From assembly GCF_033097485.1 (NCBI RefSeq), contig NZ_AP028634.1:62001-126000 (forward strand): DNA of 64,000 nt, read 5' to 3'. Both the position numbers and the translations under genes were made by a program. Positions within the stretch are counted from its first letter, which is position 1. Each line of letters begins with the position of its first letter. Under the pieces are notes generated by a model. It saw nothing but the letters and a program-made list of their open reading frames with translations. It was not told where the DNA came from and ran no database searches. This document shows, piece by piece, positions 1 to 64,000 of this stretch. The stretch is from Pyrofollis japonicus (GTDB lineage Archaea; Thermoproteota; Thermoprotei_A; Sulfolobales; Pyrodictiaceae).

Positions 1-1
1 C

Positions 2-712
2 ATAGCCTCGATGATAGCGAAGTATGGCGACTGGTACGTAGTAGAGGACGGCGGAGCCCTCAAGGGGATCAACCTTGACTATCCATGGCACTTTGAGCCC
101 GTTGAGTCGCCGAGCATCGACCTATGGCTAGAGTATCCGCCATTCGCCTGGAGATCACCGCATAACAAGAAGATGTTCGAGCACTTCAAGGAGGAAATGA
201 ACTTCGTCCCAACGGAACTACCCCTACCCGAAGGAGCCTCACCAGTAGTAGTAACAACCAATAGGCTCACCGAGCACTGGCACACCGGTATAATGACGCG
301 CTCACTGCAGAGACTGGCAATGCTGTTCCCCGAGCCCTTCGTAGAGATACCTAGGGAGCTTGCCGAAAAGCTCGGAATAAGGAACGGCGACATCGTGGAG
401 ATAGGCAATCGCCGTGCAAGAATCTATCTAAGGGCGCTCATCACTAACAGGGCACCGAAGCTAAGGATTGCTGGCAAAGAGGTATACGTGGTCAATATTC
501 CGTGGCATTGGGGGTTCAGCGGCCTCCACGCATCCACATCAATAGCTAACTTCTTGACAGGCGACTACATGGACACTACAACAACTATGCAGGAGTCCAA
601 GGTCTTCCTAGCATACATCAAGAAGGCCACTAAGGACAAGTATGTCTACATGAAGGTCTCAGAGTTCATTAAGACAGCCAAGTCGATCGACTTTATTCCC
701 TCAAATAGCTAA
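2..712 (+). CDS. Formate dehydrogenase-type molybdopterin oxidoreductase, C-terminal part (cut by window edge)
   Basis: The reading frame is open to the left edge, so the ATG at 11 is internal and only about the last 236 residues are present. The segment has the molybdopterin-dinucleotide-binding fold typical of the end of formate dehydrogenase-N-like catalytic subunits: TTNRLTEHWHTG, an AEKLGIRNGDIVEI segment, then IPWHWGFSG and a Thr-rich stretch before the end. In the family this subunit oxidises formate (or a related substrate) at a Mo/W-bis-MGD centre and passes electrons to the Fe-S subunit. It is followed after 18 bases by such a subunit and then by an NrfD-type membrane subunit. The catalytic Cys/Sec region lies outside the window, so the substrate cannot be fixed; other DMSO-reductase-family activities remain possible. 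Confidence 0.85.
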   Translation: MASMIAKYGDWYVVEDGGALKGINLDYPWHFEPVESPSIDLWLEYPPFAWRSPHNKKMFEHFKEEMNFVPTELPLPEGASPVVVTTNRLTEHWHTGIMTRSLQRLAMLFPEPFVEIPRELAEKLGIRNGDIVEIGNRRARIYLRALITNRAPKLRIAGKEVYVVNIPWHWGFSGLHASTSIANFLTGDYMDTTTTMQESKVFLAYIKKATKDKYVYMKVSEFIKTAKSIDFIPSNS

Positions 713-730
713 CCCGCGGGGTGAGCATGC

Positions 731-1540
731 GTGGCCGTGAAGGTTAAAGGAAAAGCAATGCTCTTTGACGCGGAGAAGTGCATAGCTTGCAGGGCTTGTG
801 AGATAGCGTGTCTAGAGTGGAACAACCTACCAGGCGACGACACGGAGTTCAGCCCGACCTATACGAACCCGCAATACGTTACATCAAGGACGTGGACAAC
901 CATAATATTCCACGAGCTCTTCGGCAGCAACGGCAAGCCACCGCTATGGGTGTTCACGAAGCTCCAGTGCTTCCACTGCCTCCAGCCAACATGTGTAGAG
1001 GTCTGTCCGACCAGGGCGCTACACGTTGACTCAGAGACAGGAGCAGTAGTATGGGATGGCAGCAAGTGTATTGGCTGCGGCTACTGCGAAGTAGCGTGTC
1101 CATTTGGCATAGTCAAGCTCAACAAGGAGGCGAACACGATTGACAAGTGTACGTTCTGCAATGACAGGATAAAGAATGGCATACCGCCGGCATGTGCACA
1201 GGCATGCCCGACGGGAGCGCTTGTGTTCGGCGACTATGACGAGATAAGGGCGAAGGCAGAAGCCCTTGACAAGGAGGGGCGCTACGTCTATGGTCTCCGC
1301 GAGGTCGGTGGGACAAGATACATGATAGCCCTGCCCAAGGGTGTCAGGCCGAAGGACGTCGGATTACCATCAGCGTCTACCAGGGAGCCTGCATACGCAT
1401 TGTCGAACACCGGGAAGGACAACTATAGCTCGTTTAGCGGGAAGATTCTCGCGGAGTGGGTGGCTATAGGTGCTGTTGGTGGAGCTATTTTGGCTGGCCT
1501 GGTAAAGTCCCGGAAAGGTGAAGAGGAAAAGAAAGAGTAG
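731..1540 (+). CDS. Four-cluster [4Fe-4S] electron-transfer subunit with C-terminal membrane anchor (FdhB/FdnH-like)
   Basis: GTG start, chosen because a purine-rich GGTGAG site lies just upstream and the first Cys motif follows at residue 17. Four cysteine motifs are visible: CIACRACEIAC (residues 17-27), CFHCLQPTCVEVC, CIGCGYCEVAC, and CTFCNDRI followed by PACAQACP. This is the pattern of DMSO-reductase-family beta subunits carrying four [4Fe-4S] clusters. Near the C-terminus (about residues 241-260) there is one hydrophobic helix (AIGAVGGAILAGLV) ahead of a charged tail, as in FdnH, so the subunit should be tethered to the membrane. It relays electrons from the upstream molybdopterin subunit to the NrfD-like protein that follows. 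Length 269 aa, normal for the family. Confidence 0.9.
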   Translation: MAVKVKGKAMLFDAEKCIACRACEIACLEWNNLPGDDTEFSPTYTNPQYVTSRTWTTIIFHELFGSNGKPPLWVFTKLQCFHCLQPTCVEVCPTRALHVDSETGAVVWDGSKCIGCGYCEVACPFGIVKLNKEANTIDKCTFCNDRIKNGIPPACAQACPTGALVFGDYDEIRAKAEALDKEGRYVYGLREVGGTRYMIALPKGVRPKDVGLPSASTREPAYALSNTGKDNYSSFSGKILAEWVAIGAVGGAILAGLVKSRKGEEEKKE

Positions 1541-1558
1541 CCTCGGAGGTGAGTCCGA

Positions 1559-2500
1559 ATGGAGATAGGACCTGATGTTACATGGAGCACACTCATAGCA
1601 TTGTATCTTTACCTTGGCGGAATGGCTGGCGGAATGTGGATGCTCGGCTTCGCAGCAGACTATGCTGACAAGAAGGGCGAGAAGTACTACGTGGTGGCGA
1701 AGACAGCATCGTATCTCGCACCAATAACTCTTGCAGCAGGTGTCCTATTGCTAGTACTTGACCTACACCGCGCAGCCGTCGGAACCGAGGGGCTCTTACA
1801 CATACTCAACGTGTTCAACAATACATCGTCATCAGTAATGACTATAGGCTCGATAATAATATCAGTCGCGATAATATGGGGGCTCATAGTAGCAATAATG
1901 TACTACGCCAACGCATCCAGGCCATGGAGGCTAGTATTCAGCTTCATAGCAGCAATACTTGGCTTCGCAACAGCAGCATACACTGGACTACTACTATCAA
2001 TGGCGAGGCATGCAGCCCTCTGGAACACCGGTTGGCTCTCATGGCTCTTTGTGACAAGCGGGGCAAGCAGCGGCATAGCAGCAACAATAATAATGACAAG
2101 GATCCTGGGAAGCTTCACGCCTGACTACTTGCTACCAGAGTTCCGGAAAGTCAAGGACAAGTGGCTAGACATCGCCGAGAAGCTCCACAAGTACGATGTA
2201 GTAGTGCTATGGATGGAAATAGCCATGCTCATAGGCATGCTGATAGACATCTATGCGAGGTTCGGGTCAACACCGGTAAGCTGGCTAATCAAGTCAACAT
2301 CGGCGGCAGTAGCGTTCTGGAGCTACCTAGTACTGGGCTGGGCAACCCCAATAGCAATGTACTACACGATGCCCAAGAAGAACAAGGTAAACATCTACCT
2401 AGGAGCAATACTCATAGCATGTTTCGCACTGGCACTAAGATACGCTATCCTACTAGCGCCGCAGCTAGCATGGAAGAACGCTGGCTTTCCATTCCACTAA
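1559..2500 (+). CDS. NrfD/PsrC-family integral membrane subunit
   Basis: 313 aa with about eight hydrophobic helices and an N-terminal YLYLGGMAGGMWMLG segment typical of NrfD/PsrC proteins. Members anchor molybdopterin enzymes and exchange electrons with quinone without haem. It is preceded by a GGAGGTGAG ribosome site and is the third gene of the operon. Use of an NrfD-type subunit rather than a cytochrome b gives the complex a polysulfide-reductase-like membrane part combined with a formate-dehydrogenase-like catalytic and Fe-S part. Direction of electron flow (formate oxidation or reductase) cannot be read from the sequence. Confidence 0.88.
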   Translation: MEIGPDVTWSTLIALYLYLGGMAGGMWMLGFAADYADKKGEKYYVVAKTASYLAPITLAAGVLLLVLDLHRAAVGTEGLLHILNVFNNTSSSVMTIGSIIISVAIIWGLIVAIMYYANASRPWRLVFSFIAAILGFATAAYTGLLLSMARHAALWNTGWLSWLFVTSGASSGIAATIIMTRILGSFTPDYLLPEFRKVKDKWLDIAEKLHKYDVVVLWMEIAMLIGMLIDIYARFGSTPVSWLIKSTSAAVAFWSYLVLGWATPIAMYYTMPKKNKVNIYLGAILIACFALALRYAILLAPQLAWKNAGFPFH

Positions 2501-2503
2501 TAC

Positions 2504-2538
2504 GGCACCTTTTTCCTACCTTGCCTCACGGCTTTTTA
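2504..2538 (+). terminator. T-rich stretches after the dehydrogenase operon
   Basis: Just after the stop codon at 2500 there are two T5 runs (CACCTTTTTCC and GGCTTTTTAAG) without a strong hairpin. Oligo-T tracts act as intrinsic terminators in archaea. Assigned by position and composition only. Confidence 0.4.
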
Positions 2539-2585
2539 AGTCTATATCAATTCTATTGTCTCTGCTTCTTGCCGTGCCGACAGGG

Positions 2586-2596
2586 ATTAAATAAAA
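2586..2596 (+). promoter_or_regulatory. TATA-like element for the DUF445 gene
   Basis: ATTAAATAAAA lies 32-42 bases before the ATG at 2628, the spacing expected if transcription begins at or close to the start codon (a leaderless or very short-leader message, common in Crenarchaeota). Confidence 0.45.
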
Positions 2597-2627
2597 TTCT
2601 CTTCTCTCGCCGCCTCTGCGGGTATAA

Positions 2628-3221
2628 ATGTTGGGGCTCCTAACCAGCATAGGGATAATAGTACTCTTCGGCCTAGTTGGCGGAGCAATAGGCTACCTAA
2701 CCAACGTTATTGCTGTCCGTATGTTGTTCCGGCCCGAGAAGCCCCGCTGCATTCTCCCAGGTCGCAGAGTTTGCATCCAGGGCCTTATCCCGGCCCGTAA
2801 GGATGCACTTGCTAGGCGCCTAGGCCGAGTGATGGCGAAGTACGCGTACTCTAGGAGTATTCGTGAGAAGTATAAGCAGCGCCTGGAGAAGGAGATAGCT
2901 GGCCTCATAAGGGAGGCCGTGGAGGAGAAGCTGCGCCAGTCGCCTATACAGAGCCCCCTGGCAGCGATGCTTCTCCCAGGCCTAGCCGAGATGCTCGCGA
3001 AAGCAGTAACCCCTATGGTGATAGAGCTGTTAGAGAAGGCATCTCTGAGAGTAAACGTCGCAGAGATAGTCGAGGAGGAGTTCAAGAGCCTGCCCGTGGC
3101 AGAGCTCGAGAAGGTCTTCAAGGAAATAGCCAGCAAGGAACTAAGATTCATAGAGATAATGGGCTTCATCCTGGGAGCAATAATAGGCTTAGCAGAAGGC
3201 ATAATAGCTCTAATAGTCTAG
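2628..3221 (+). CDS. DUF445-family membrane protein
   Basis: 197 aa. The N-terminus has a hydrophobic segment and the signature GGAIGYLTNVIAVRMLFRP (about residues 18-36), characteristic of DUF445 proteins. It is followed by IQGLIPARKDALARRLGRVM, a long charged helical region, and a C-terminal hydrophobic helix. DUF445 proteins are membrane proteins of unknown biochemical role. Bacterial members are usually about 400 aa, so this is the short archaeal form. A TATA-like element sits directly upstream and there is no operon partner on this strand. Confidence 0.8.
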   Translation: MLGLLTSIGIIVLFGLVGGAIGYLTNVIAVRMLFRPEKPRCILPGRRVCIQGLIPARKDALARRLGRVMAKYAYSRSIREKYKQRLEKEIAGLIREAVEEKLRQSPIQSPLAAMLLPGLAEMLAKAVTPMVIELLEKASLRVNVAEIVEEEFKSLPVAELEKVFKEIASKELRFIEIMGFILGAIIGLAEGIIALIV

Positions 3222-3306
3222 ATCCTTGACACCCCTCATGCAGAATCTCATTAAGTATAGTAGGACTTTTTCTCGTATTCCTAGTGGTCTTATAGAGGGG
3301 AGAACA

Positions 3307-3789
3307 GTGGCTGCTACAATAACGCTCCCTAAGAGAATATTGGAAAGAATTAAACGTGAGGCTGAAAAACAAGGTACTGGACTCGAAGAATATGTAGTTG
3401 AAATACTTGTACAGAATCTTGATCCAGAAACACGTGCACAAGAATACATAGATGCTGCGAAAGAGCTTCTAAGAGAAGCTTATGAGGAGCTTGAGAGGGG
3501 CAACATAAGGCAGGCGGCTGAGAAAACATGGGGTGCAGCAGCCTTAGCGATTAAGGCTTATGCGTCTTGGCAGGACAAGAAACGGTTGGCGAGCCACAGC
3601 GAACTATGGGAGTATGCAGCAAGGCTTGGCGAGGAACTGGGAGACTGGGTTGACGATGCATGGAACCAAGCGAATAGCATGCACATCTGCTTCTACGAGG
3701 GCTGGTGTAAGAAAAGACATGTAGAGGCGGCGCTGAAACATGTAGAGAGGCTAGTCAAAACAATTGAGGAGAAAATGCAACAAAAATAA
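3307..3789 (+). CDS. Ribbon-helix-helix domain fused to PaREP1 domain
   Basis: The open frame begins at 3226, but the GTG at 3307 is preferred: GAGGGGAG lies just upstream and the protein then starts with a typical RHH strand (AATITLPKRILERIKREAE). Residues about 3-38 form the ribbon-helix-helix DNA-binding unit. Residues about 45-155 match the PaREP1 family (EYIDAAKELLREAYEELERG, then a KTWGAAALAIKAYA helix). PaREP1 proteins are archaeal helical proteins that have been linked to the HEPN superfamily, a group rich in RNases and toxin-antitoxin components. The fusion suggests a self-regulating module, but no nuclease motif (Arg-x4-6-His) is obvious. No partner gene lies next to it. Confidence 0.7.
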   Translation: MAATITLPKRILERIKREAEKQGTGLEEYVVEILVQNLDPETRAQEYIDAAKELLREAYEELERGNIRQAAEKTWGAAALAIKAYASWQDKKRLASHSELWEYAARLGEELGDWVDDAWNQANSMHICFYEGWCKKRHVEAALKHVERLVKTIEEKMQQK

Positions 3790-3946
3790 CGACTGCAACA
3801 ATATTGTGCTGCAGCCCTGGCTAGCCCCTCTTGGCCGTATGCGTACAAGATTCTTGGTCTAGGCCTGCAGCCCCAAATAGGATACTTCGATGAGACCCGT
3901 CATCCTCGGCGGCTAAAAGGCGTTAAGACCGAATAGCGGCTAGCTA

Positions 3947-4453
3947 TTATTCTCTTGTTCTCGGTCCTGCTAGATAGTGTTTGGAGGGCCTTGTGCTACT
4001 GCTCCATACTTGTTTCCAGAACTCTTGTTCGTCCTCTATGGTTTCTAGTTTCTCTACCTGCGTGGCTAGTGCTACTAGGAGGGCGTGGTGGCGGTTCTCG
4101 TCCTCGAGTATAGCTTCTAGGACTAGTTTCAGCCTAGGGTCATCGGTTTGATGGAGCAGCTTGTGTGCTAGCTCTACCATGTTTCTCTCGGTCTCTATGT
4201 GTTTCCTCACCGCTTCTTTGAGCTTAGCTAATTCTTCCCGCGTCAAGAGGCCCTGCTTACCCGAAGCTATCTCGGCTGCTGCTTGGTAGAACAAGCTGTG
4301 TTTGCGCGAGTCGCCAGCTATTCCTAGGAGCAGTGCTCTGAGAATAGGGTGGGGAAGATCCCTGGCTATGTTCTCTAGCTCCTCTGCGTACTTTTTCTCG
4401 TTCTCGGAGGCCTGGGTAAAGATTCTTACAAGGTCTTCTGCCAAGACAAGCAC
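3947..4453 (-). CDS. Ferritin-like/rubrerythrin-fold protein
   Basis: 168 aa, all helical, GTG start. Carboxylate-histidine patterns typical of ferritin-like di-iron folds are visible: an N-terminal ENEKKYAEELE helix, GDSRKHSLFY near residue 50, a central ETERNMVELAH helix, and EDENRHHALL near residue 117. The family binds a di-iron centre and works in peroxide or oxygen detoxification or iron handling. No rubredoxin CxxC domain follows, so it is a short rubrerythrin/erythrin-type protein. It is convergent with the RHH-PaREP1 gene. Confidence 0.7.
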   Translation of the reverse strand: MLVLAEDLVRIFTQASENEKKYAEELENIARDLPHPILRALLLGIAGDSRKHSLFYQAAAEIASGKQGLLTREELAKLKEAVRKHIETERNMVELAHKLLHQTDDPRLKLVLEAILEDENRHHALLVALATQVEKLETIEDEQEFWKQVWSSSTRPSKHYLAGPRTRE

Positions 4454-4559
4454 ACCTGCCTAGGTCTAGGAGAGGAGTTATTGCCGTATTTTAATCATAG
4501 GCGTCCCGGAAAACAAGCAGGAGTAGTCTTCTCCTCTTCTAGCCACTGTCCATGATGCC

Positions 4560-5861
4560 GTGTCTGCCCGGATGCCTTGTTGTGCGGGGACAAGCTCTTA
4601 TCATGCCAGGCTCGGTGCTCTAGCGCAGTGGCTGAGCTGGCTCGGTGTCTCGGCAGTGCTTCCAGGCCAGTTAGTGGCGTTCATTGCTGGCTACGCTGTA
4701 CTTGTGGTGGTTGCTCTCCGCGGCAGGGGGCCGCTGGCGGCTATCGCGGCGATGATAGCTGTTTACGGCGCCTATAGTCTGTTGTTCCACGGCGCTGACA
4801 GCATTGTTGCTAGCTTCTTGGCGCTGGGAGAATGGGTTAATCTGCGAACCTTTGTCTACATATTTCTCAGCTTGTTCCTGGCCGGCGTTCTCCGCGAGGC
4901 GGGCTACCTCTCCCTGCTGGTGGAGGGCTCGTCGGCGGTTGGGTGCAGGTTCAGCTTCCTAGCAGTACCGGCTCTCATAGGCCTCCTACCCATGCCTGGC
5001 GGCGCCCTGGTCTCGGCCATGGCTATGAGGCGGAAGTACCTAGAGGAGGCCCGTATGCCCCCGGAGTGGGCTGGGTACCTAAACTATTGGTTCCGCCACG
5101 TATGGGTTCCGATGTGGCCCATATTCCAGAGCATAATAATCACCGCTGCGGTGCTCGGCACGACACCCATGGGTGTCGTCTCTAACACGTGGCCCGAGAC
5201 TCCTGCAGCAATACTTGGCGGGCTCCTAGTGGCTATTCCTGCACTCTATCGCTACAAGTGCAATAGGGGCGGGAGGCTTATGGACCTCCTCAAGGCGCTG
5301 TGGCCGTTTCTCCTCCTAGCAGCCCTGGTATTCAGCCACGTAGTTGGCCTCCTAGAGGCCCTCGTCATCACCCTCGCGGTGGTATTGTTAGTGCTTCGGC
5401 CCGGGCGGAGAGAGTTGCGCGGAGCACTGGGGCTTGCAACGAAGCCGAGAATACACGGAGTATTAGCGGAAGCCCTCTTCCTTAAGGAACTGCTCAGCCA
5501 CACTGCCGCGCCTCACGCGATGTACGAGTTCGCCACGGGCTTAGGGCTTCCCGAGACAACGGTCTTGTTCTCAGTGCCTTTCATCCTCGGCCTTGCCGCT
5601 GGCGGCGAGAACTTCTTCGCGGCCACAGCCATACCGCTGCTCAAGACATACATCGTCTCCAGCGGAGCCATAAACCAGGCAGCACTGCTAATAGCCTATA
5701 CCGGGGGCTCCATGGGCGTAATGGTCTCCCCTGTCCACCTATGCTTCGCCCTCACAGTGGACTACTATCGGGCAAATACTGCGAAGACTCTTGCTCTAGC
5801 AGCGCTCGCGGCTATAGCTACCTCGGCGATAGTTGTCTTCACCATACTCCCGCTCCTATAG
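4560..5861 (+). CDS. DUF401-family multi-pass membrane protein
   Basis: 433 aa, GTG start at 4560 (an in-frame ATG at 4572 is an alternative). About ten to twelve hydrophobic helices are present, with the conserved LLPMPGGALVSAMAM segment near residue 145 and a repeat-like second half ending LCFALTVDYYRAN. These features match DUF401, an archaeal/bacterial integral membrane family that resembles ion or organic-anion transporters but has no proven substrate. It stands alone between oppositely oriented or unrelated genes. Confidence 0.75.
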   Translation: MSARMPCCAGTSSYHARLGALAQWLSWLGVSAVLPGQLVAFIAGYAVLVVVALRGRGPLAAIAAMIAVYGAYSLLFHGADSIVASFLALGEWVNLRTFVYIFLSLFLAGVLREAGYLSLLVEGSSAVGCRFSFLAVPALIGLLPMPGGALVSAMAMRRKYLEEARMPPEWAGYLNYWFRHVWVPMWPIFQSIIITAAVLGTTPMGVVSNTWPETPAAILGGLLVAIPALYRYKCNRGGRLMDLLKALWPFLLLAALVFSHVVGLLEALVITLAVVLLVLRPGRRELRGALGLATKPRIHGVLAEALFLKELLSHTAAPHAMYEFATGLGLPETTVLFSVPFILGLAAGGENFFAATAIPLLKTYIVSSGAINQAALLIAYTGGSMGVMVSPVHLCFALTVDYYRANTAKTLALAALAAIATSAIVVFTILPLL

Positions 5862-6004
5862 ACCCCTCGTTCCGCACCGTATAGGCCCGGGTATCACATA
5901 GAGTAGTACCCAGAGGTCATCAATCCCCCAGACCTGATTACCCTTGCACTTCTATCCGGGAACACCAACTCTAACCTAGTACCTGGAGCCTCCTCCGCTG
6001 CACA

Positions 6005-6775
6005 TTGCCCCATGTTTCCGAGGAGGAGGGGGCCCTCTCCCCGTCAATCACTCGTAGCGAGGCCGTGAACGCCGTGAGCGAGAAGCTAGGCGTGAGAGAA
6101 CGTGTACTAGACTTCTTAGCTAGGCACGGGGAGAGGGCCTATGCTGTTCTACGAGCCATACTCGAGTCCTACTATGGTTCCCAGAGCGCACCGGGCGTCA
6201 AGCTAGGGGATTTCAGTTACCGCGACGTAGTGAACAAGCTACGCGCGTGGGGCATGAACTATAATCCCTCAATGCTTCTCCGCAGCCTTGAAAGAGACTA
6301 CGGTGTAATCGAGACCAGTTATCAGAGCAGGAACCAGCACTGGTGGAGAATCAATAGCCCCGAGGAGATAGCAGAGGCCCTCGAGGAGTACGAGAGAGGC
6401 GTTGTCAGCGACGACGCTCTCTTAGCGGAAGAGATCGTGGACCCGGAGACCGAGCTACTGCGTCTCCAAGTAGCGAGCCTGGACCCGGCATCGCTGCTCG
6501 AGAAGCTGGACCGTCTGCTCGCTAAGCCGCGGCTGGGCAGGGCCGAGATACTGCTACTTCGCACAATGGCTTTTAACGAGCTAGAGCTTGTCGTCAAGCT
6601 TCTCCGAAAAGCCGAGGAACTGGGCTATGAGGGCCCAGAGGTTGCAATGCTCAAAGAGATACTTGTGAAGGCGTCTAGGCTCGCCAAGAGGCTCCTAGCA
6701 GCAGCGAAGACTAGTACAGATGCGAGGAAAACCATGCTGCAATTAGCGTCTATGACGACAAGCATAGAAGGATAA
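6005..6775 (+). CDS. Unknown archaeal protein with probable winged-helix N-terminal half
   Basis: 256 aa if the TTG at 6005 is the start. I do not recognise a named family. Residues about 25-120 look like a winged-helix unit: ERVLDFLARHGERAYAVLRAI, then FSYRDVVNKLRAWGMNYNP as recognition helix, then an aromatic hairpin with NQHWWRI. The C-terminal half is a bundle of Leu/Glu/Lys-rich helices. A DNA-binding or chromosome-associated role is possible by inference only. It is convergent with the 6791 gene with only 15 bases between them. Confidence 0.55.
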   Translation: MPHVSEEEGALSPSITRSEAVNAVSEKLGVRERVLDFLARHGERAYAVLRAILESYYGSQSAPGVKLGDFSYRDVVNKLRAWGMNYNPSMLLRSLERDYGVIETSYQSRNQHWWRINSPEEIAEALEEYERGVVSDDALLAEEIVDPETELLRLQVASLDPASLLEKLDRLLAKPRLGRAEILLLRTMAFNELELVVKLLRKAEELGYEGPEVAMLKEILVKASRLAKRLLAAAKTSTDARKTMLQLASMTTSIEG

Positions 6776-6790
6776 CAGGGCGCGAAGGGT

Positions 6791-7693
6791 CTAGGCGGTT
6801 CTTCTCCGCGAAGAAGCTCTGAGAGCTATGAGCCTTGAGAGAGTCTTTGCAGCCTCCTCGTGAAACTCCTCATCCTTGACAATGTTGTCTATGAGCATAG
6901 ATACAAGCTGCCCCTCGTCGCCCCTGAACAAGGTTTTCATGAGTGGTAGGAGGAGTTGTGTGTACTTCTCTTCCCCGGTAAGCTTCTCGAGTCCAGCCAG
7001 TACTCGGAATGCCTCAGCCAGTAAGGACTCAGCGCTATCTATACTGCTTGGCTGCTTCGTCTTCTCTTCTAGCTCTTGAACATAGTCTGCAAGCCTCTTT
7101 ATCTCGGGGTCAGGGCATTTCTCGGCAGCTTCCTCGCCTTCGGGGAGAGAAGCGCCGAGCCTCGCGGCGATACCTTTAACGGCCTCCATGTGCGCCTTGC
7201 TTTCTAGTCCTATGTAGCTCGATACGCTGCTTAGTAGCGGATCTCTTCTTGCAAGGAGGTCGCCGAGCAATAGATATGCTTTCACAGCTAGGTGCTCTGC
7301 GGCGTAGATGCACAGAAGCATCTCACCTACATCTTCTTCAACGCCTCTGTAAGGCTTGGTCATCAATCCGAGTATTTCGTATACGCGGCTCCAGTCATCC
7401 CTAAGCATCGCCTCTGCTAGCTCCTCGGGCTTCTTGTCTAAGCCAAGTAGCTCTACAAGCGGTTTTGCAACGAAGATTAAGAGGGCGGTTCGAAGACCGG
7501 TTTCAGAGCTATAAATCTTCTTAAGAAGCTCTTTTGCCTCGGAGAACCTTCCCTCAACCAATAGCCTGGGAAAGGAGGTGCCGCAGCACCGCCTAGCGGC
7601 CATGTCGAGTGCCGTGAAGGCGCCGGGAGCAACGCGTTTCAGCATATCGGTGAGCTTCTGCTCGAGGCTGCTCTTCTCACTATTGCTGAGCAT
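6791..7693 (-). CDS. Unknown helical protein with ferritin-like E-x2-H motifs
   Basis: 300 aa, ATG start. Not assigned to a family. It has a CC pair near residue 33, then helices with potential di-iron ligands: AAEHLAVKAY, GLESKAHMEAV, and a late KDEEFHEEAAK. The spacing of Glu and His residues resembles ferritin-like bundles, so a metal-binding role is plausible, but the length is unusual and the N-terminal about 100 residues are unlike any ferritin known to me. It lies within 2.5 kb of another ferritin-like gene (3947-4453). Confidence 0.5.
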   Translation of the reverse strand: MLSNSEKSSLEQKLTDMLKRVAPGAFTALDMAARRCCGTSFPRLLVEGRFSEAKELLKKIYSSETGLRTALLIFVAKPLVELLGLDKKPEELAEAMLRDDWSRVYEILGLMTKPYRGVEEDVGEMLLCIYAAEHLAVKAYLLLGDLLARRDPLLSSVSSYIGLESKAHMEAVKGIAARLGASLPEGEEAAEKCPDPEIKRLADYVQELEEKTKQPSSIDSAESLLAEAFRVLAGLEKLTGEEKYTQLLLPLMKTLFRGDEGQLVSMLIDNIVKDEEFHEEAAKTLSRLIALRASSRRRTA

Positions 7694-7831
7694 TTCTTGG
7701 GCCGCCTTACAGTACTGTGGAGCAGGTTGTGATTTAAATACCTTGACTCGAACAGTTTAGATAAATATGCTATAAACAAGGAAAAATCAATAGTGGTTTA
7801 GCGAGCGATGTTTCCTCGGCATCAAGACCTA

Positions 7832-9304
7832 TTATTTCCGGAGTAGCTCTATGACTGTTCTTACGCCCCAGCCTGTTGCTCCGCCGGGGTAGTAGGGTTT
7901 CCAGGGCCCCTTTTCCTGTACCCAGGCCGTGCCGGCGATGTCTAGGTGAGCCCATGGGGTGTCTCCGACGAACTTCTCTAGGAACTTCGCGGCAGTTATT
8001 GCTCCGGCGGGTCTTCCTCCTACATTGTTTGTGTCGGCTACTTTGCTTTCGAGCTGCTTCTCGTAGACCGGCCAGAGGGGCATTGGCCAGGCTGGTTCGC
8101 CTGCGAGCCTTGAGGCCTTCTCGACGCTTCTCAGTAGCTCCTCGTTGTTACTGAAGAGTGCTGCCGCGTGGTTTCCAAGTGCTACCACTGCTGCCCCGGT
8201 GAGGGTCGCGAAGTCTACCATGAACTTGGGCTTGTACTTCTCCGCCGCGTATGCCAGGGCGTCTGCGAGTATGAGCCTGCCCTCGGCATCAGTGTTGCCG
8301 ACCTCAACTGTTAAGCCGTTGTACATCTTTATGACGTCTAGTGGCTTGTAGCTCTTCCCGCTCGGCAAGTTCTCAACAGCGGGTACCAGGGCGACTACTC
8401 GGTAGGGTAGCTTGAGCCGAGCAGCCGCGACCACGGTGCCTATTGCTGCTGCGCCGCCGCACTTATCGTACTTCATCTCGAGCATGGCCTGTGGGGGCTT
8501 GAGGTCTAGACCGCCAGCGTCGAACGTCACGGCCTTGCCCACTACGGCTACGGTGTCTCCACCGCCATTGTACTCAAGTATTATGAGCCGAGGCTCTACC
8601 TCGCTACCCTGCCCAACAGCCAGTATGCCGCCCATCCCTAGGTTCTCGAGCTCGCCACGGTGAAGCACAGTTATGCCTAGCCCTAGTTTCTCCGCGATCT
8701 CTCTAGCATAGGCCTCTAGGCGCTCCGGGTTCATCATGGCCGGTGGCGCGTTACCGATATCCCTTGCAACCCTAACGCCCTCAGCTATGCCTAGAGCGTT
8801 CTGGAGAGCAGCCTCGGTGCCGGGCTCTACGCCTATCTCGGCCAAGACGTGCGGTGCATCGCCTTTGCCCTTCAAGGCGTAGGCATAGTTAGCCATGTCC
8901 GCGGCTACCATTAGCTGCTCGATAACCCAGTCCGTGCTCTTGCCTGCCTCGGCGGCCGCCTTCTCCACGAGCTCTTCGAGAACAATTACTCCGAGCTTCT
9001 TGATGCCCTTCCTCTTGCGGGCTTCTCGGACAGCAGCCCCGACGCCGACGCGAAGCCTCTCAACGAGGTCCGGCCAGTCGCTTGCACCGCCCACGCCGCT
9101 CAGAATGACCCGGCTAGGCTTAGTGCCCGGCTCATAGAGCATGGCTGTTTCTTCGAGCCCTGCCCTGAAGTCGCCGAGGCCAATGGCTTCGGCAGACGCT
9201 CTGCCTAGAGCCTTTGCTTTCTCAAGTGTTTCCTTGCTAACCACGTAAGCTACTGCATCTACTTCGCCTTTGTCGAACCCTGCGCGTATTGAGCCGCGTA
9301 TCAA
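7832..9304 (-). CDS. pepA: Leucyl aminopeptidase, peptidase family M17
   Basis: 490 aa, TTG start. The C-terminal catalytic domain shows the M17 signatures: KAVTFDAGGLDLKP, MKYDKCGGAAAIG, and the hallmark NTDAEGRLILADAL, which together supply the Lys, Asp and Glu ligands of the two-metal site and the catalytic Arg. The N-terminal about 160 residues form the usual non-catalytic domain. It is a cytoplasmic hexameric enzyme that removes N-terminal residues in peptide turnover. Length is normal and no key residue is missing. It is a single-gene unit with AT-rich sequence at its 3' side. Confidence 0.95.
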   Translation of the reverse strand: MIRGSIRAGFDKGEVDAVAYVVSKETLEKAKALGRASAEAIGLGDFRAGLEETAMLYEPGTKPSRVILSGVGGASDWPDLVERLRVGVGAAVREARKRKGIKKLGVIVLEELVEKAAAEAGKSTDWVIEQLMVAADMANYAYALKGKGDAPHVLAEIGVEPGTEAALQNALGIAEGVRVARDIGNAPPAMMNPERLEAYAREIAEKLGLGITVLHRGELENLGMGGILAVGQGSEVEPRLIILEYNGGGDTVAVVGKAVTFDAGGLDLKPPQAMLEMKYDKCGGAAAIGTVVAAARLKLPYRVVALVPAVENLPSGKSYKPLDVIKMYNGLTVEVGNTDAEGRLILADALAYAAEKYKPKFMVDFATLTGAAVVALGNHAAALFSNNEELLRSVEKASRLAGEPAWPMPLWPVYEKQLESKVADTNNVGGRPAGAITAAKFLEKFVGDTPWAHLDIAGTAWVQEKGPWKPYYPGGATGWGVRTVIELLRK

Positions 9305-9515
9305 GGCTGAGAACCCGCCTCCGCATAGAATCAGTCTCCAGTACTAAGGGGCAAAAACGCTAATGCTGGCCGAGACAAGCACTATTCACAGGCGTTAACA
9401 TTAATAAAGGGGGTTCATAGCCTAATAACCTATTGGAGAACGAACTACTAATCCATACTCTGAGCAGGAAAACCTGGACCCGAATACCCTCGTTTTGACG
9501 CGTGGTGACTCCTTT

Positions 9516-9715
9516 ATGGCGAGGCTGTTCCGGGGCTGGGACGTATAGTCTTCCGGAAGGCAAGTAACCTAGTATATCTCGTCCTCGCAGCACTATTCAT
9601 CTACAAAGCTCTTGAAGAGGCACACTTCGACAAAGTATGGGGCATAATATATGCGCTCGTAGGTCTTGAATACCTCCTAGAAGGCGCTCCTCTCGCAAAG
9701 CCGAAGCACCACTAG
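9516..9715 (+). pseudogene. Small membrane protein gene with an apparent frameshift
   Basis: An ATG at 9516 with a GGTGA ribosome site seven bases upstream opens a frame that stops at 9546. The frame starting near 9531 then reads without stops to 9715 and encodes a convincing short membrane protein (ASNLVYLVLAALFIYKALEE, then WGIIYALVGLEYLL and a basic tail). That second frame has no start codon of its own. One extra base in the GGGG run at 9532-9535 would join the two parts into a protein of about 66 aa. Either the gene is broken or the sequence has lost a base there. No family recognised. Confidence 0.4.
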
Positions 9716-9906
9716 CTGCAATTCTGCAACGAGTACCCGATAAACTACATTTTTCCGTCACAGCATATAACGCGGCGGTGCAAGGGACGAGACAGCAATG
9801 GTTAAGGAGTTCTCGACGACCCCTACCATTTTTCGCGGCAAGGAGAGTACTTAATTGTAGCTGCAACTGCTAGGTACACGCGTGTCAGACGATTGGCGAG
9901 GAATCA

Positions 9907-10641
9907 ATGAGCGAAGAATGTAGAAGCATTATGGGCGCCTATCTCCGGGAAGCCCTTAGGAAGCCCGGCTGCCCGATATGTAGGCTCATAAGAGATGCGG
10001 AGGAAAGACTTGTTAAGAGTATCCTCTACGAGTACGTTAACGATCCTGGTGTTCGGCGCGAGATTCGCAGCAGCCTCGGCTTTTGCACTCACCACGCATG
10101 GCTGCTTCTGAGGATGGCTCTTAGCCCGGAGATAGCTGATAGCCTCGGGGCTGCAATTATCTATGAGGATGTGGTTTCAACGTATATGGAGAGCCTCGAG
10201 AAGGGTAGAATACCCGAAGAGGAGAACGAGTGCCCTGTATGTAGGACCGCGAGGGAGACTGAAGAGATCTATGTTGAGGAGTTTTCCAAGTGTTACCAAG
10301 TCTCTGAGAAGTTTCGCGAGGAATACGCTACATTACCAGCCATTCTCTGCAGAAGGCACCTAAGAATGGTGCTGAGTAGGCTGCCTCAAAAGGAGCTACG
10401 GAACCAGCTTCTTCGAGCACAGCTAGAGAAGCTCAAGGATATTCGGGAAAGACTTGAAAGACTGATAGAGAAACACGACTATCGCAGCCAAGAGCCTATT
10501 ACAAGGAGAGAGCAACAAGCACTACGGGAGGCCATTGAGGCGCTCCGAGGCAGAGAGGTGGCGACGACTCTTTGTGACCGAGCAGAGCCCCGGAGGCAGC
10601 GGAGTAGCTTCCTTGAGAAAATTCTTGGCAGGACACGGTAA
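9907..10641 (+). CDS. DUF6062-like Cys/His-rich protein
   Basis: 244 aa. Two related halves are visible, each with a CPxC motif followed by a Cys/His pair: PGCPICRLIRDAEER ... LGFCTHHAWLL and ENECPVCRTARETEE ... LPAILCRRHL. This arrangement fits the DUF6062 family known in bacteria and archaea, function unknown. The eight Cys/His positions suggest two metal sites or an Fe-S cluster. The C-terminal 70 residues are charged and helical. The sequence GYVNDPGVRR-like helix before the Cys/His pair is also typical. It stands alone and the start follows a short GC-poor leader. Confidence 0.6.
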   Translation: MSEECRSIMGAYLREALRKPGCPICRLIRDAEERLVKSILYEYVNDPGVRREIRSSLGFCTHHAWLLLRMALSPEIADSLGAAIIYEDVVSTYMESLEKGRIPEEENECPVCRTARETEEIYVEEFSKCYQVSEKFREEYATLPAILCRRHLRMVLSRLPQKELRNQLLRAQLEKLKDIRERLERLIEKHDYRSQEPITRREQQALREAIEALRGREVATTLCDRAEPRRQRSSFLEKILGRTR

Positions 10642-10808
10642 GGATGAGCCCCCCTTGCCTATCCATAGTCTCGAGAACAGGGGCGGCCTTAGCTGCCTAG
10701 ATGCTGGATCCCTCTCTTGGTATCTGGGCCTTGCGCACAGCGAGTCATCGGCCTCTTATACCTCTTTAACCCGCGTTTACCCGTCTCTCCCCTGTATGGC
10801 GTTGAGCC

Positions 10809-11189
10809 TTGACGTGCAGCTGTAAACCGAGTAGTTCAGCACTAGAACTGGCTCTTTGTCTTGCACCTCCCTGTGGCGAGTATGAAGTATCCCTCGAGGG
10901 CCACGCGGGTACACAGATAATACTCTGCGAGGATGGTGTCTTCATACGCAGTGTTGCGAGGGATGAGTGGCTACCCTTCCTCGAGACACGTGACCGTCCG
11001 GCTTCGAGGCAAGCCTTGCTCTCAGCGCTAAAGCTGAACAACCTGGACGAACAAGGCCTCCTATGCCTAGTGCTTAGGTCGCTGAGACTAGCAGCTAATA
11101 GTGGCTCACTAAAGGCTGCGAAAAAGCTCCGTGACTGCCGGGAGCTGATTCGTCGCCTGGAGGAAGCCTGTAGGGGGAAGAAGGAGTAG
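10809..11189 (+). CDS. Hypothetical protein, 126 aa
   Basis: TTG start at 10809, weakly supported. The N-terminal part is Cys-rich (TCSCK, LCLAPPC). The middle looks like a small beta domain (EYEVSLEGHAGTQIILCEDG), and the C-terminal half is helical and charged (LLCLVLRSLRLAANSG). Codon use is like the neighbouring genes, which supports a real gene, but I recognise no family. It lies between the DUF6062-like gene and a convergent small gene. Confidence 0.45.
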   Translation: MTCSCKPSSSALELALCLAPPCGEYEVSLEGHAGTQIILCEDGVFIRSVARDEWLPFLETRDRPASRQALLSALKLNNLDEQGLLCLVLRSLRLAANSGSLKAAKKLRDCRELIRRLEEACRGKKE

Positions 11190-11211
11190 CGGCAACAAAG
11201 GGATTATAGAA

Positions 11212-11571
11212 TTATTTAGTCTCATTGAGCTGGCTCTTTAGTTCTTCAAGCTCTTTTTTCAGCTCCTCGAGCTCGCCTATGAGCTTATCTATGCGTTTTT
11301 CAATACTCTCTATCCTCTCCTGTATGGTTCCCTTCTCGGGCTTTCCTCCCTTGGCTAGGAGCACTACTAGGTCTAAGTAGCTTGTACTGTGGCGTGGGAT
11401 TAGGCTCAGAACTTGACCCGTGTCGGCATTGACAACGTCCACTGATACTAGGCCCCGGTAATCCTTAGTGGTTATAGTTGTCTTCCAGTACAATGTTCCA
11501 TTAATAATTGTGGGCATCGGCTCCTCTATGCTCAACTGGCTCCAACCATAAACAGGGTGGGCTTGCTTCAC
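11212..11571 (-). CDS. Small protein with PepSY-like strand region and C-terminal coiled coil, possibly a gene fragment
   Basis: 119 aa, GTG start; an in-frame stop lies a few codons upstream, so it cannot be longer in the present sequence. Residues 1-60 read like the inside of a beta domain (IINGTLYWKTTITTKD, GLVSVDVVNADTGQVLSLIP), recalling PepSY-type repeats. Residues 75-117 are a clear heptad coiled coil (RIESIEKRIDKLIGELEELK). The lack of a signal peptide, and the start in the middle of what looks like a domain, suggest the remnant of a larger membrane protein. A genuine small protein is also possible. Confidence 0.45.
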   Translation of the reverse strand: MKQAHPVYGWSQLSIEEPMPTIINGTLYWKTTITTKDYRGLVSVDVVNADTGQVLSLIPRHSTSYLDLVVLLAKGGKPEKGTIQERIESIEKRIDKLIGELEELKKELEELKSQLNETK

Positions 11572-11607
11572 GTAGCTTGTACTTAGTCAAGCTGATCACT
11601 TTGATGA

Positions 11608-12270
11608 GTGTATATACTTATTAACACAGTTTGCCTATCAAATAAATTAGGGGTGTCTCTGCTGATTACTGCATCTATACTATTGATTACAATTGCTATG
11701 ACTATATTGAGTTATAGTCTAAGGAAATGGGCGCTAGAGAATGGGGAAATAGATGCATTTGAACTTGCAGATGGGATGTTTCTAGCATCCTCTGTTGTTC
11801 TTAGCATGCTTGTGCTTAATTATTACCTCGGCGGGGGTACTTCAATTACACGATTGCTCAAGCTCACAGGATTAGCTAACGTGAACGTACTAAACATCAC
11901 TAGAACCGAAATGTATGGTATTATATATGGTTTAGTGTTTGGAGCATCAAATTCTAACTTTGAGATAATAATAGACTATTCTTTAAGGCTAATTGTTTAC
12001 TTGGCTTATATAGCACTGATACCTCATGAAATATTCAAACAAACAAGTGTTTACAATATTGTATCAAGGAGAGCAATAAGGATATTGCTTTATGCACTTG
12101 CTTTAGTTCTTGGAGTTGCTTTTATTGTAATATTTATCTTAGTGCTATATAAACTGGTAATACTTATAGTTTATCCTGTAAATTCTATTGGATATCTGGT
12201 TCGTGGCTTCTTATCAGGGCTTCTAATTTCATCTATGACAGTTGTCATTAATAGGTTCAAAAGTAGCTAA
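11608..12270 (+). CDS. Unknown multi-pass membrane protein, AT-rich
   Basis: Up to 220 aa, GTG at 11608; a GTG near 11653 with AGGGG upstream is an alternative start. Five or six hydrophobic helices are visible (VSLLITASILLITIAMTIL, a GMFLASSVVLSMLVLNYY helix, LLYALALVLGVAFIVIFIL and others). No family recognised. The gene is clearly more AT-rich than its surroundings and uses codons such as ATA, TTA and AAT freely, which suggests a different origin. It sits next to a tRNA gene, a common place for acquired DNA in archaea, but no integrase or attachment repeat is seen. Confidence 0.5.
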   Translation: MYILINTVCLSNKLGVSLLITASILLITIAMTILSYSLRKWALENGEIDAFELADGMFLASSVVLSMLVLNYYLGGGTSITRLLKLTGLANVNVLNITRTEMYGIIYGLVFGASNSNFEIIIDYSLRLIVYLAYIALIPHEIFKQTSVYNIVSRRAIRILLYALALVLGVAFIVIFILVLYKLVILIVYPVNSIGYLVRGFLSGLLISSMTVVINRFKSS

Positions 12271-12351
12271 GATAAGTGTTTTAGTTATTGTTTATATAAT
12301 TAAGTATGCATAAGTAAGAGATATCGGAAAAGTAGTGGGCCCTTGCGGGCG

Positions 12352-12467
<116 letters not shown>

Positions 12468-12632
12468 GTCCAGTCGTCTCCAAGTAGTATTGGAGAGACA
12501 CTACTCTTGATTAGAGGTTATTAAGCATTATGTTCTAGGATGACCTAAGGGTACGCTGGGCTTCACGGGGCAGCGCTAATGCATTAATATTGTAGACTTA
12601 ATACTATCCGTGTAAGTGGGGCCTATGCTGGC

Positions 12633-13022
12633 TTGGTTGAGCTTCCTCTTGAATGGGTTGAGAAGGCAGACGTGCTAATAGATGATGCAGAGAGACATCT
12701 TAGGGAAGGCCATTACTGGCTTACCTGTTTTGAGGCACAGCAGGCAGCAGAACTATATCTCGAAGCATTGATCGTTGCCCTTACGGGCACTCATCCATTT
12801 ACGCACGACTTGGCAGAGCTTCTTGAAGCGCTCCGAGAGCTAGATATCAGTGTCCCCGACGAGCTATTCGTCTACGCAGATGCACTTACACCTCACTACA
12901 CTATGGCCCGGTATCCTGGCCGGAAACCTCTGAGATATGACAGAGAGCTCGGTGAGAGGTGTCTCCGCTATGCCAGGAGAATCATCGACTGGGTTAAGGA
13001 GGCGGCTTCTAAGATCTCTTAG
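12633..13022 (+). CDS. HEPN-domain protein (partner of the adjacent MNT nucleotidyltransferase)
   Basis: 129 aa, TTG start. It shows the HEPN pattern: an N-terminal WVEKADVLIDDAERHL helix, CFEAQQAAELYLEALIV, then THDLAELLEALREL and a late HYTMARYPGRKP segment. HEPN proteins paired with minimal nucleotidyltransferases (MNT) form widespread prokaryotic toxin-antitoxin-like modules in which HEPN can be an RNase and MNT inactivates it by adding nucleotides. Here the RYP-type C-terminal motif replaces the canonical Arg-x4-6-His, as in the PF05168-like subgroup. The MNT gene follows eight bases downstream. Confidence 0.85.
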   Translation: MVELPLEWVEKADVLIDDAERHLREGHYWLTCFEAQQAAELYLEALIVALTGTHPFTHDLAELLEALRELDISVPDELFVYADALTPHYTMARYPGRKPLRYDRELGERCLRYARRIIDWVKEAASKIS

Positions 13023-13029
13023 AGAGAAA

Positions 13030-13356
13030 GTGGCGAAAAGCGACGAGCTACTGGAAGCCTTTTTGGCCAGGCTTCGTGAAAAATATCCTCGCTCAGCAAT
13101 AGTGCTTTTCGGCTCAAGGGCTCGCGGCGATCATCTTCCATACAGTGACTATGATGTAGCACTAGTGCTTCGCGACGAAGACTGTGCCGACAAAGTAGGG
13201 GTTGCTGAGGAGGCTCGTGCACTGAAGCCGCCAGGGCTCAGCCTCGACCTAATAGTGCTCTGCGTCAGCGAGCTGGACGACCCCCTGGTTAAGCAGATGC
13301 TTGGCGCCAAAAAAGTACTCTATGATGGCCTAGGCGTGTTCGAGGAGAAACACTGA
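13030..13356 (+). CDS. Minimal nucleotidyltransferase (MNT) of a HEPN/MNT pair
   Basis: GTG at 13030 preferred; an upstream ATG at 12937 would overlap the HEPN gene by 86 bases. About 108 aa. The pol-beta-type nucleotidyltransferase motif is intact: VLFGSRARGDHLPYSDYDVAL provides the GS...D-x-D metal site and LSLDLIVL the third Asp. MNT proteins of these pairs transfer nucleotides to the HEPN partner. Same strand and close spacing indicate one operon. Confidence 0.85.
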   Translation: MAKSDELLEAFLARLREKYPRSAIVLFGSRARGDHLPYSDYDVALVLRDEDCADKVGVAEEARALKPPGLSLDLIVLCVSELDDPLVKQMLGAKKVLYDGLGVFEEKH

Positions 13357-62868: not shown

Positions 62869-64000
62869 TTACTCCCCGCCATCCTCTCCACGTCTTCGCC
62901 TAAGCTTCTTAGCAACATGCACATCTAGAGGGTGATGAGGTGGAAGCCCGATCCGCTTCGCAGCCTCATCTATAATCCTTCTCGCTTCTTTCTCGCTCAG
63001 CTTCTCGGCGACAACCAGTATGTCGACGTCGCCAGCCTTCTCCACCTCCCTACGAGCAATACTTCCCACAATCCTAATCTCGAGTTCAACACCCTTAGCG
63101 ATCTTCTTGGCTTCTTCAACTAGTTTCGGCAACCACTTCTCCCATTCACGTATCAGCTTCTCCCGCTCCCGGAGCCTCGGATCAATATATCGTGCAAGCT
63201 TTCTCCCAGTGATCCCTCTATAGGCGGCTTCCACGATAAACGAGCCCACGACGATGCCGATGAATACGAGTAATTGTCTCGGGTCAAGGCTCGCCATCCG
63301 GTACACAAGCGTGGCCAGGGCTACTATGGAGAGAGCCATGCCTGTAAGCGTTAGTGCGGGGTTTGCGCCCGTTTTATGCCGGAGCTTGTACGCAGCATAG
63401 TTTATCGCGGTAAATATCAGGAGGAACCCACCGCTACCTGCAGTCGATATAGCTTCCAGCCTTGCACCAAGGGCGAGCAGTAGGCTTAGGAAAGCTATGA
63501 TTAGTAGTCCCTCATACGCGTTCCCCCATACTCGTTTTCCGAGAACCCTTGGCGCTTCACCATACTTTGCAACTATGTATGACATCCTGGCTGTACCGTA
63601 GAGCGTCGCGTTTATCGCCGAACTCGTACTCGCCAAGGCGGCCGTGACGACCAAGTAGTATCCCGCCTTGCCGAGTACGGGCTCGGCGAGTACTGCTAAT
63701 ACATAGTCCCTTGCTTCTTCAACGATCTCCGGGCTAAGCGAGCCAGCCGCCACAAGGGCTATGAGGATGTAGACGCTGATGACTGTGACTACGCTTGCAT
63801 ATAGGGCTCTTCTCAGTACTGTGAGGCTAGAGGCGTCCATAGCAGCGTTTGAGACGAGCTCGAAGCCTTCATAGGCGAGGAATATTATCATTCCTCCTGC
63901 AACAATGTTTACAACTGATGGCCAATGGGCTGGGGAGAGGCGGCTCCAATCAACAAATAAGAAGCCTATAGCGCCGATGGATAGAAGGACTATTAGCTTA
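62869..64000 (-). CDS. Amino-acid permease (APC family) fused to a nucleotidyltransferase domain (cut by window edge)
   Basis: The frame continues to the right edge (a further 36 residues before the Met codon at 63891), so the start is missing. Numbering from that Met, residues about 1-225 are transmembrane helices of an APC-type amino-acid permease (AYEGFELVSNAAMD, a TAALASTSSAINATLYGTAR helix, FLLIFTAINYAAYKL). Residues about 230-265 form a charged linker, and residues 270-330 are a nucleotidyltransferase: RIVGSIARREVEKAGDVDIL gives GS276-277 and Asp288/Asp290, with a third Asp at 323 in HPLDVHV. The pol-beta triad looks complete. This combination is unusual; the enzymatic domain would be cytoplasmic. 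Confidence 0.85.
   Translation of the reverse strand, partial: KLIVLLSIGAIGFLFVDWSRLSPAHWPSVVNIVAGGMIIFLAYEGFELVSNAAMDASSLTVLRRALYASVVTVISVYILIALVAAGSLSPEIVEEARDYVLAVLAEPVLGKAGYYLVVTAALASTSSAINATLYGTARMSYIVAKYGEAPRVLGKRVWGNAYEGLLIIAFLSLLLALGARLEAISTAGSGGFLLIFTAINYAAYKLRHKTGANPALTLTGMALSIVALATLVYRMASLDPRQLLVFIGIVVGSFIVEAAYRGITGRKLARYIDPRLREREKLIREWEKWLPKLVEEAKKIAKGVELEIRIVGSIARREVEKAGDVDILVVAEKLSEKEARRIIDEAAKRIGLPPHHPLDVHVAKKLRRRRGEDGGE

What the first reader, a model, noticed from the sequence alone, without database searches (positions are those of the whole stretch)
62869..64000. APC-family permease with a C-terminal minimal nucleotidyltransferase domain
One uninterrupted frame joins amino-acid-permease transmembrane helices to a domain with GS-276/277, Asp288/Asp290 and Asp323, the full pol-beta-type catalytic set. 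Known MNT domains usually stand alone with HEPN partners. A nucleotidyltransferase on a transporter could modify the transporter itself, a substrate taken up, or a partner RNA/protein, so this may be an uncharacterised regulatory or toxin-control architecture.
Basis: partly seen in the sequence, partly recalled or inferred. Interest (0 to 1): 0.72.

Follow-up and report, generated by a model that had tools for sequence, protein, structure and literature searches.

The report
Amino-acid permease with nucleotidyltransferase-fold tail
Heat-loving archaea and some bacteria, mostly known from deep-sea vent genomes, carry an amino-acid importer permanently joined to a small nucleotide-handling domain that in the bacterial relatives has lost its active site, so it is more likely a built-in sensor that regulates uptake than a working enzyme.

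Summary
The fusion is real: one uninterrupted 536-codon gene (window 62869-64000, running 479 nt past the window). Residues 1-425 are an ApcT-type amino-acid permease; the last ~105 are a pol-beta-type minimal nucleotidyltransferase (MNT) domain with G472/S473, D484, D486 and D519. It is no assembly join: 104 full-length homologues were collected from Thermoproteota, Archaeoglobi, other archaea and several bacterial phyla, and the fused domains form one clade. The enzyme or toxin-control reading is weakened. A bacterial clade has lost the whole active site, though the fold is predicted intact and selection continues. In 69 distinct live archaeal copies the third acid is D in 36 and H in 33, and the serine before DxD (61 of 61 stand-alone MNTs) is never kept. 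There is no HEPN partner or conserved neighbour. Best explanation (0.55): a cytosolic nucleotide- or metal-binding regulatory domain gating an H+-coupled amino-acid symporter, analogous to KimA's adenylyltransferase-like c-di-AMP sensor. An active protein-modifying enzyme remains possible in D-D-D members, including the window's. No published description was found in the open literature searched. New variant of a known kind.

The parts
62869..64000 (-). CDS of the permease-NTase fusion, C-terminal 376 codons (residues 161-536) plus stop. The gene continues 479 nt beyond the window (genome C1:124869-126479).
63205..63999 (-). ApcT-like permease part inside the window (residues 161-425, from TM5 to TM12)
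   Evidence: Pfam AA_permease_2 6e-31; MJ0609/ApcT E 5e-57; Foldseek ApcT TMt 0.90
63997..63999 (-). K161 codon, equivalent of the ApcT proton-coupling lysine K158; Lys in 104/104 homologues
   Evidence: alignment; count; role of K158 from PMC12764776
62872..63189 (-). C-terminal linker helices and pol-beta-type minimal nucleotidyltransferase domain (residues 431-536)
   Evidence: Pfam NTP_transf_2 25.7 bits; profile match to 1ylq, 2rff, 1wot and MntA; AlphaFold2 model, mostly above 90 pLDDT in this region
63061..63066 (-). G472-S473, phosphate-binding GS motif
63022..63030 (-). D484-x-D486 metal-binding pair (GDVD; the usual Ser of SDxD is Gly here)
62923..62925 (-). D519, third catalytic acid position; His in 33 of 69 distinct live fusions

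Best explanation
It is an H+-coupled amino-acid symporter of the ApcT type whose cytosolic C-terminal domain was captured once from a stand-alone MNT nucleotidyltransferase and now serves mainly as an allosteric regulatory domain. In archaeal members the retained glycine and DxD site binds a nucleotide with metal (or a metal alone), and this changes the inward-open/occluded equilibrium of the permease, coupling uptake to cell state. In the bacterial lineage the site has degenerated and a structural or protein-contact role remains. Shown: the fusion, its single origin, the invariant proton-coupling Lys, the (predicted) preserved fold and the graded loss of active-site residues. Inferred: ligand binding, direction of regulation, substrate.
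For: Fused CTDs form one clade against 60 stand-alone MNTs (SH-aLRT 97). K161 = ApcT K158 in 104/104. The glycine, DxD and the His two residues after the third acid are invariant in 41 divergent archaeal CTDs, so a site is under selection. Features tied to transfer are relaxed: third acid D 36 / H 33 in live fusions against E/D in 54 of 61 stand-alone MNTs (Fisher p 8e-6, not corrected for relatedness), with at least 9 switches on a permease-only tree; Ser before DxD in 61 of 61 stand-alone MNTs and in 0 of 69 live fusions. In MntA that Ser bonds the gamma-phosphate and the third Asp binds only the second Mg (PMC7641770). Bacterial CTDs lack the site but are homologous (hhalign 99.9%), are predicted with the same topology and show purifying selection (dN/dS about 0.1-0.34). 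Precedents: KimA, an APC-superfamily H+ symporter, has an adenylyltransferase-like cytosolic domain that senses c-di-AMP and traps the inward-occluded state (PMC10284832); archaeal permeases also occur fused to USP domains (PMC12159084).
Against: No ligand, contact or transport datum is available. Loss of one acid does not prove loss of catalysis: the RelA/SpoT synthetase NT fold lacks one of the three acids (PMC11646218). The window protein keeps D-D-D. Invariant DxD could equally reflect catalysis in archaea. The alignment behind the bacterial model includes archaeal rows, so the predicted fold preservation is partly borrowed.
Confidence: 0.55

Rival explanations
1. The domain is an active nucleotidyltransferase in archaea that AMPylates (or NMPylates) the permease itself or a cytosolic partner, switching transport on or off. 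Bacterial copies are dead derivatives.
For: The window protein has GS, DxD and D519. 36 of 69 distinct live fusions keep D-D-D, and G and DxD are invariant. MntA relatives AMPylate proteins (PMC7641770).
Against: The third acid switches between D and H at least nine times; the gamma-phosphate Ser is never present; there is no conserved partner gene; 21 dead copies persist.
Confidence: 0.22
2. The domain is a structural module (dimerisation, stability or docking of another protein) and its relic active site has no ligand.
For: Bacterial copies lose the whole site yet keep the predicted fold and purifying selection.
Against: In archaea the glycine, both Asp and one His are among the only invariant positions of an otherwise variable domain, which a mere scaffold would not require.
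Confidence: 0.17
3. The domain modifies the transported substrate on entry (group translocation by adenylylation).
For: Only the proximity of a DxD site to the cytosolic exit of a transporter.
Against: Dead copies sit on the same conserved permease, which therefore presumably works without it.
Confidence: 0.03
4. Toxin-antitoxin or HEPN-controlling device, one of the first reader's suggestions.
For: Close domain relatives in the same genome are mostly MNT partners of HEPN genes.
Against: No HEPN within about 49 kb; no conserved neighbour in 80 loci.
Confidence: 0.03

Closest known systems
ApcT (MJ0609, PDB 3gi9), APC superfamily H+-coupled amino-acid transporter
   Same: Same permease family over residues 10-430, E 5e-57; TMt 0.90; the K158 proton-coupling lysine is kept.
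   Different: ApcT ends after TM12; it has no NTase domain.
Stand-alone MNT nucleotidyltransferases (AF0614 1ylq; MntA of HEPN/MNT)
   Same: Same PF01909 family and GS-x10-DxD motif; closest relatives are stand-alone crenarchaeal MNTs.
   Different: Fused to a permease, no HEPN partner, Ser before DxD replaced, third acid often His, bacterial copies dead.
KimA (KUP family, APC superfamily), c-di-AMP regulated
   Same: Proton-coupled APC-fold transporter with a C-terminal adenylyltransferase-like fold repurposed as a nucleotide sensor (PMC10284832).
   Different: KimA's domain is described as PPAT-like, not pol-beta/MNT; it transports K+; its ligand is known.
Amino-acid permease-USP fusions of archaea
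   Same: An amino-acid permease with a fused soluble domain thought to be regulatory (PMC12159084).
   Different: USP fold, unrelated to the NTase fold.

Membership tests
APC / ApcT-like amino-acid permease | Sequence match above the family cut-off | tested here: met
   AA_permease_2 108 bits vs cut-off 27
APC / ApcT-like amino-acid permease | LeuT-like fold | tested here: met
   AlphaFold2 pLDDT 91.5, Foldseek ApcT TMt 0.90
APC / ApcT-like amino-acid permease | Proton-coupling lysine on TM5 (K158) | tested here: met
   K161 aligned to K158; 104/104
APC / ApcT-like amino-acid permease | Amino-acid transport | not testable with these tools
   needs an uptake assay
Minimal nucleotidyltransferase (PF01909) | Profile match over cut-off | tested here: met
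   25.7 bits vs 21 in the window protein; archaeal relatives up to 48.7 bits; bacterial members below cut-off or no hit
Minimal nucleotidyltransferase (PF01909) | GS-x10-DxD | tested here: met
   Window protein yes; DxD in 83/104 family members
Minimal nucleotidyltransferase (PF01909) | Third acid on the last strand | tested here: inconclusive
   D519 in the window protein; His in 33 of 69 live fusions; lost in dead ones
Minimal nucleotidyltransferase (PF01909) | Ser immediately before DxD (all 61 sampled stand-alone MNTs) | tested here: not met
   Gly in the window protein; never Ser in 69 live fusions
Minimal nucleotidyltransferase (PF01909) | Nucleotidyl transfer | not testable with these tools
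   needs an enzyme assay
HEPN/MNT toxin-antitoxin module | Adjacent HEPN gene | tested here: not met
   Nearest HEPN at about 75.0 kb, gene at 124.9 kb; none recurrent in relatives
KimA-like nucleotide-gated APC transporter | Cytosolic domain binding a nucleotide that gates transport | not testable with these tools
   analogy only

The most novel reading that the evidence does not exclude
A membrane amino-acid symporter carrying its own active protein-modifying nucleotidyltransferase, captured from a toxin-neutralising MNT, which in D-D-D members nucleotidylates the permease or a partner in response to nutrient state, and which became a pseudoenzyme after transfer to bacteria.
Probability: 0.2. 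Interest if true: 0.75.

Novelty: new variant of a known kind. Interest (0 to 1): 0.5.

Why it matters
Close relatives of this domain mostly pair with HEPN genes; here one is built into a nutrient transporter. The family holds intact (D-D-D), altered (D-D-H) and fully degenerate active sites on nearly the same permease, so it is a natural series for asking whether a nucleotidyltransferase fold on a transporter works by catalysis, by ligand sensing or as a scaffold. It would add a second fold, after KimA's PPAT-like domain, in which an adenylyltransferase-like domain regulates an APC transporter.

Tried and rejected
Assembly or frameshift artefact: rejected. HEPN partner: rejected. Conserved operon: rejected; the 120-aa ORF and Metallophos_2 phosphoesterase directly upstream occur only in this genome among the fetched loci, apart from one weak 24%-identity hit to the phosphoesterase. 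Phage origin of the domain: no hit in phages. Single-sequence phmmer of the C-terminal domain against PDB gave nothing significant; the profile did. Foldseek of full models is dominated by the permease and does not test the small domain. Literature for this architecture: none found in the open-access library; the Kuchta 2009 NTase survey is not held. 'of' in the genome search takes only G handles, so bacterial phyla were not sampled systematically. A first alignment with unoriented minus-strand loci was wrong and was redone.

Full report
Observation. The finding sits at the very end of the window. The reading frame at 62869..64000 (minus strand) is open to the window edge, and the whole genome shows that it continues 479 nt further: G000:C1:124869-126479, 536 codons, no stop. 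The TTG of the listed ORF is followed directly by a second Met codon, so the true start may be codon 2. Pfam places AA_permease_2 at residues 13-392 (6e-31) and NTP_transf_2 at 451-527 (25.7 bits, cut-off 21). All are there.

Not an artefact. In 117 genomes of the same order, 23 further genomes carry a full-length homologue (49-67% identity), while permease-only relatives occur at about 32-41%. A scan of 85,000 species genomes returned 80 loci, nearly all aligned over both domains at 44-70% identity. The record titles name Acidilobaceae, Pyrodictiaceae, other Desulfurococcales, Archaeoglobi, Hydrothermarchaeota, Thermodesulfobacteriota, Aquificota, WOR-3, Deltaproteobacteria and Deferribacteres. 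Most are MAGs, and by my count of the titles about half carry the 'scaf2bin' names used in the deep-sea vent survey PMC9793634. Some labels (WOR-3 L100, Micrarchaeota L104/L106, Thaumarchaeota L101) could be binning errors. One named isolate, Thermodesulfatator autotrophicus S606 (L117), is secure. The window genome is placed in Pyrodictiaceae because same-genus locus L020 is identical to a locus on a contig of the same length in a Pyrodictiaceae MAG (L074). Its own copy groups with an Acidilobaceae copy rather than with that of its genus, so transfer between lineages is likely.

The permease. The closest solved structure by sequence and by fold is ApcT (MJ0609; E 5e-57, TMt 0.90). ApcT K158, implicated in proton translocation (PMC12764776), aligns with K161, which is Lys in all 104 full-length homologues. 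An H+-coupled amino-acid symporter is therefore the expected activity (inference); the substrate is unknown.

The C-terminal domain. A profile of 41 archaeal copies matches stand-alone nucleotidyltransferases in the PDB (1ylq 4e-7, 2rff, 1wot, and MntA-family antitoxin 5yep at 0.002). AlphaFold2 gives helix-helix-strand-strand-helix-strand-helix for residues 434-531, mostly above 90 pLDDT up to about residue 520; the whole model has mean pLDDT 91.5 and pTM 0.92. On a tree with 60 stand-alone crenarchaeal MNTs, the 69 fused domains with DxD form one side of a single branch (SH-aLRT 97; only 94 columns), so one fusion event is the simplest reading.

Active-site erosion. Across 104 fusions, DxD is present in 83 and lost in 21. 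On a tree built from the permease part only, the loss needs two changes: L106 and the 20 sequences of the bacterial clade. That clade is nested in archaeal sequences (SH-aLRT 99). In it the motif has become, for example, LLDELA / ANKMHL / HPIKFS. The domain is still recognisably the same (hhalign 99.9%, 1e-33), the Thermodesulfatator model has the same topology (the alignment includes some archaeal rows), and close pairs give dN/dS about 0.10-0.34 for the domain against 0.01-0.08 for the permease. So it is maintained as protein, under looser constraint. Among the 69 distinct live copies the third acid is D in 36 and H in 33, with at least nine switches. In 61 stand-alone MNTs that site is E/D in 54 and H in one. 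The residue before DxD is Ser in 61 of 61 stand-alone MNTs and in none of 69 live fusions (H 39, N 14, G 12, others 4). In Shewanella MntA that Ser bonds the ATP gamma-phosphate, and the third Asp contacts only the second Mg ion (PMC7641770). The stand-alone set was collected by similarity to the fusions within one order, so it is a close but not a random control. The Fisher p of 8e-6 ignores relatedness.

Surroundings. No gene family recurs beside the fusion in more than 7 of 80 loci, and the recurrent ones are mostly shared among closely related genomes. In the own genome, seven of the ten other NTase hits sit beside a HEPN match (one of these HEPN matches is broken by stop codons), whereas the nearest HEPN to the fusion is about 49 kb away. 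In this genome the gene lies about 10 bp downstream of a 120-aa ORF that is itself preceded by a Metallophos_2 phosphoesterase, but this pair is not found in the relatives.

How it most likely works. The invariant glycine, DxD and C-terminal His of archaeal copies indicate a binding site under selection, while the features that contact the gamma-phosphate and the second metal are relaxed or replaced. I therefore favour a sensor: nucleotide and/or metal binding by the cytosolic domain alters gating of the symporter. KimA offers a close functional precedent: an APC-superfamily H+ symporter with a phosphopantetheine-adenylyltransferase-like cytosolic domain that binds c-di-AMP and traps the inward-occluded state (PMC10284832). 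Archaeal permease-USP fusions are a second (PMC12159084). Catalysis is not excluded, because the window copy has D-D-D and RelA-type NT folds work without one acid (PMC11646218).

Novelty. No paper describing an APC permease-MNT fusion was found in the open-access library; absence there is weak evidence, and domain databases will list the architecture automatically. I rate it a new variant of a known kind: an APC transporter with a nucleotide-binding-fold regulatory tail.

Noticed in passing
G000:C1:38439-75182 (window 1-13182 and upstream of the window): A cluster of HEPN-MNT pairs: HEPN matches at 38.9, 50.0, 51.6 and 74.7 kb, each next to a stand-alone MNT.
   Followed up: partly
L009:7540-8802 (+), genome C1:127540-128802, beyond the window: 420-aa protein with a long Thr-rich linker, a hydrophobic segment and a C-terminal winged helix (HTH_24 2e-11): it looks like a membrane-anchored transcription regulator.
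   Followed up: no
L009:6489-6851 and 6889-7401 (-): 120-aa ORF without Pfam match and a Metallophos_2 phosphoesterase immediately upstream of the fusion; not conserved in relatives.
   Followed up: yes
G000:C1:666549-666725 (-): HEPN match broken by two stop codons beside an intact MNT (666941): possibly a decayed toxin with a surviving antitoxin.
   Followed up: no
L058-L137: The fusion occurs in many unrelated lineages represented mostly by vent MAGs, and was not seen in the sampled members of family f11 of the order: possibly a habitat-linked gene spread between archaea and bacteria.
   Followed up: partly
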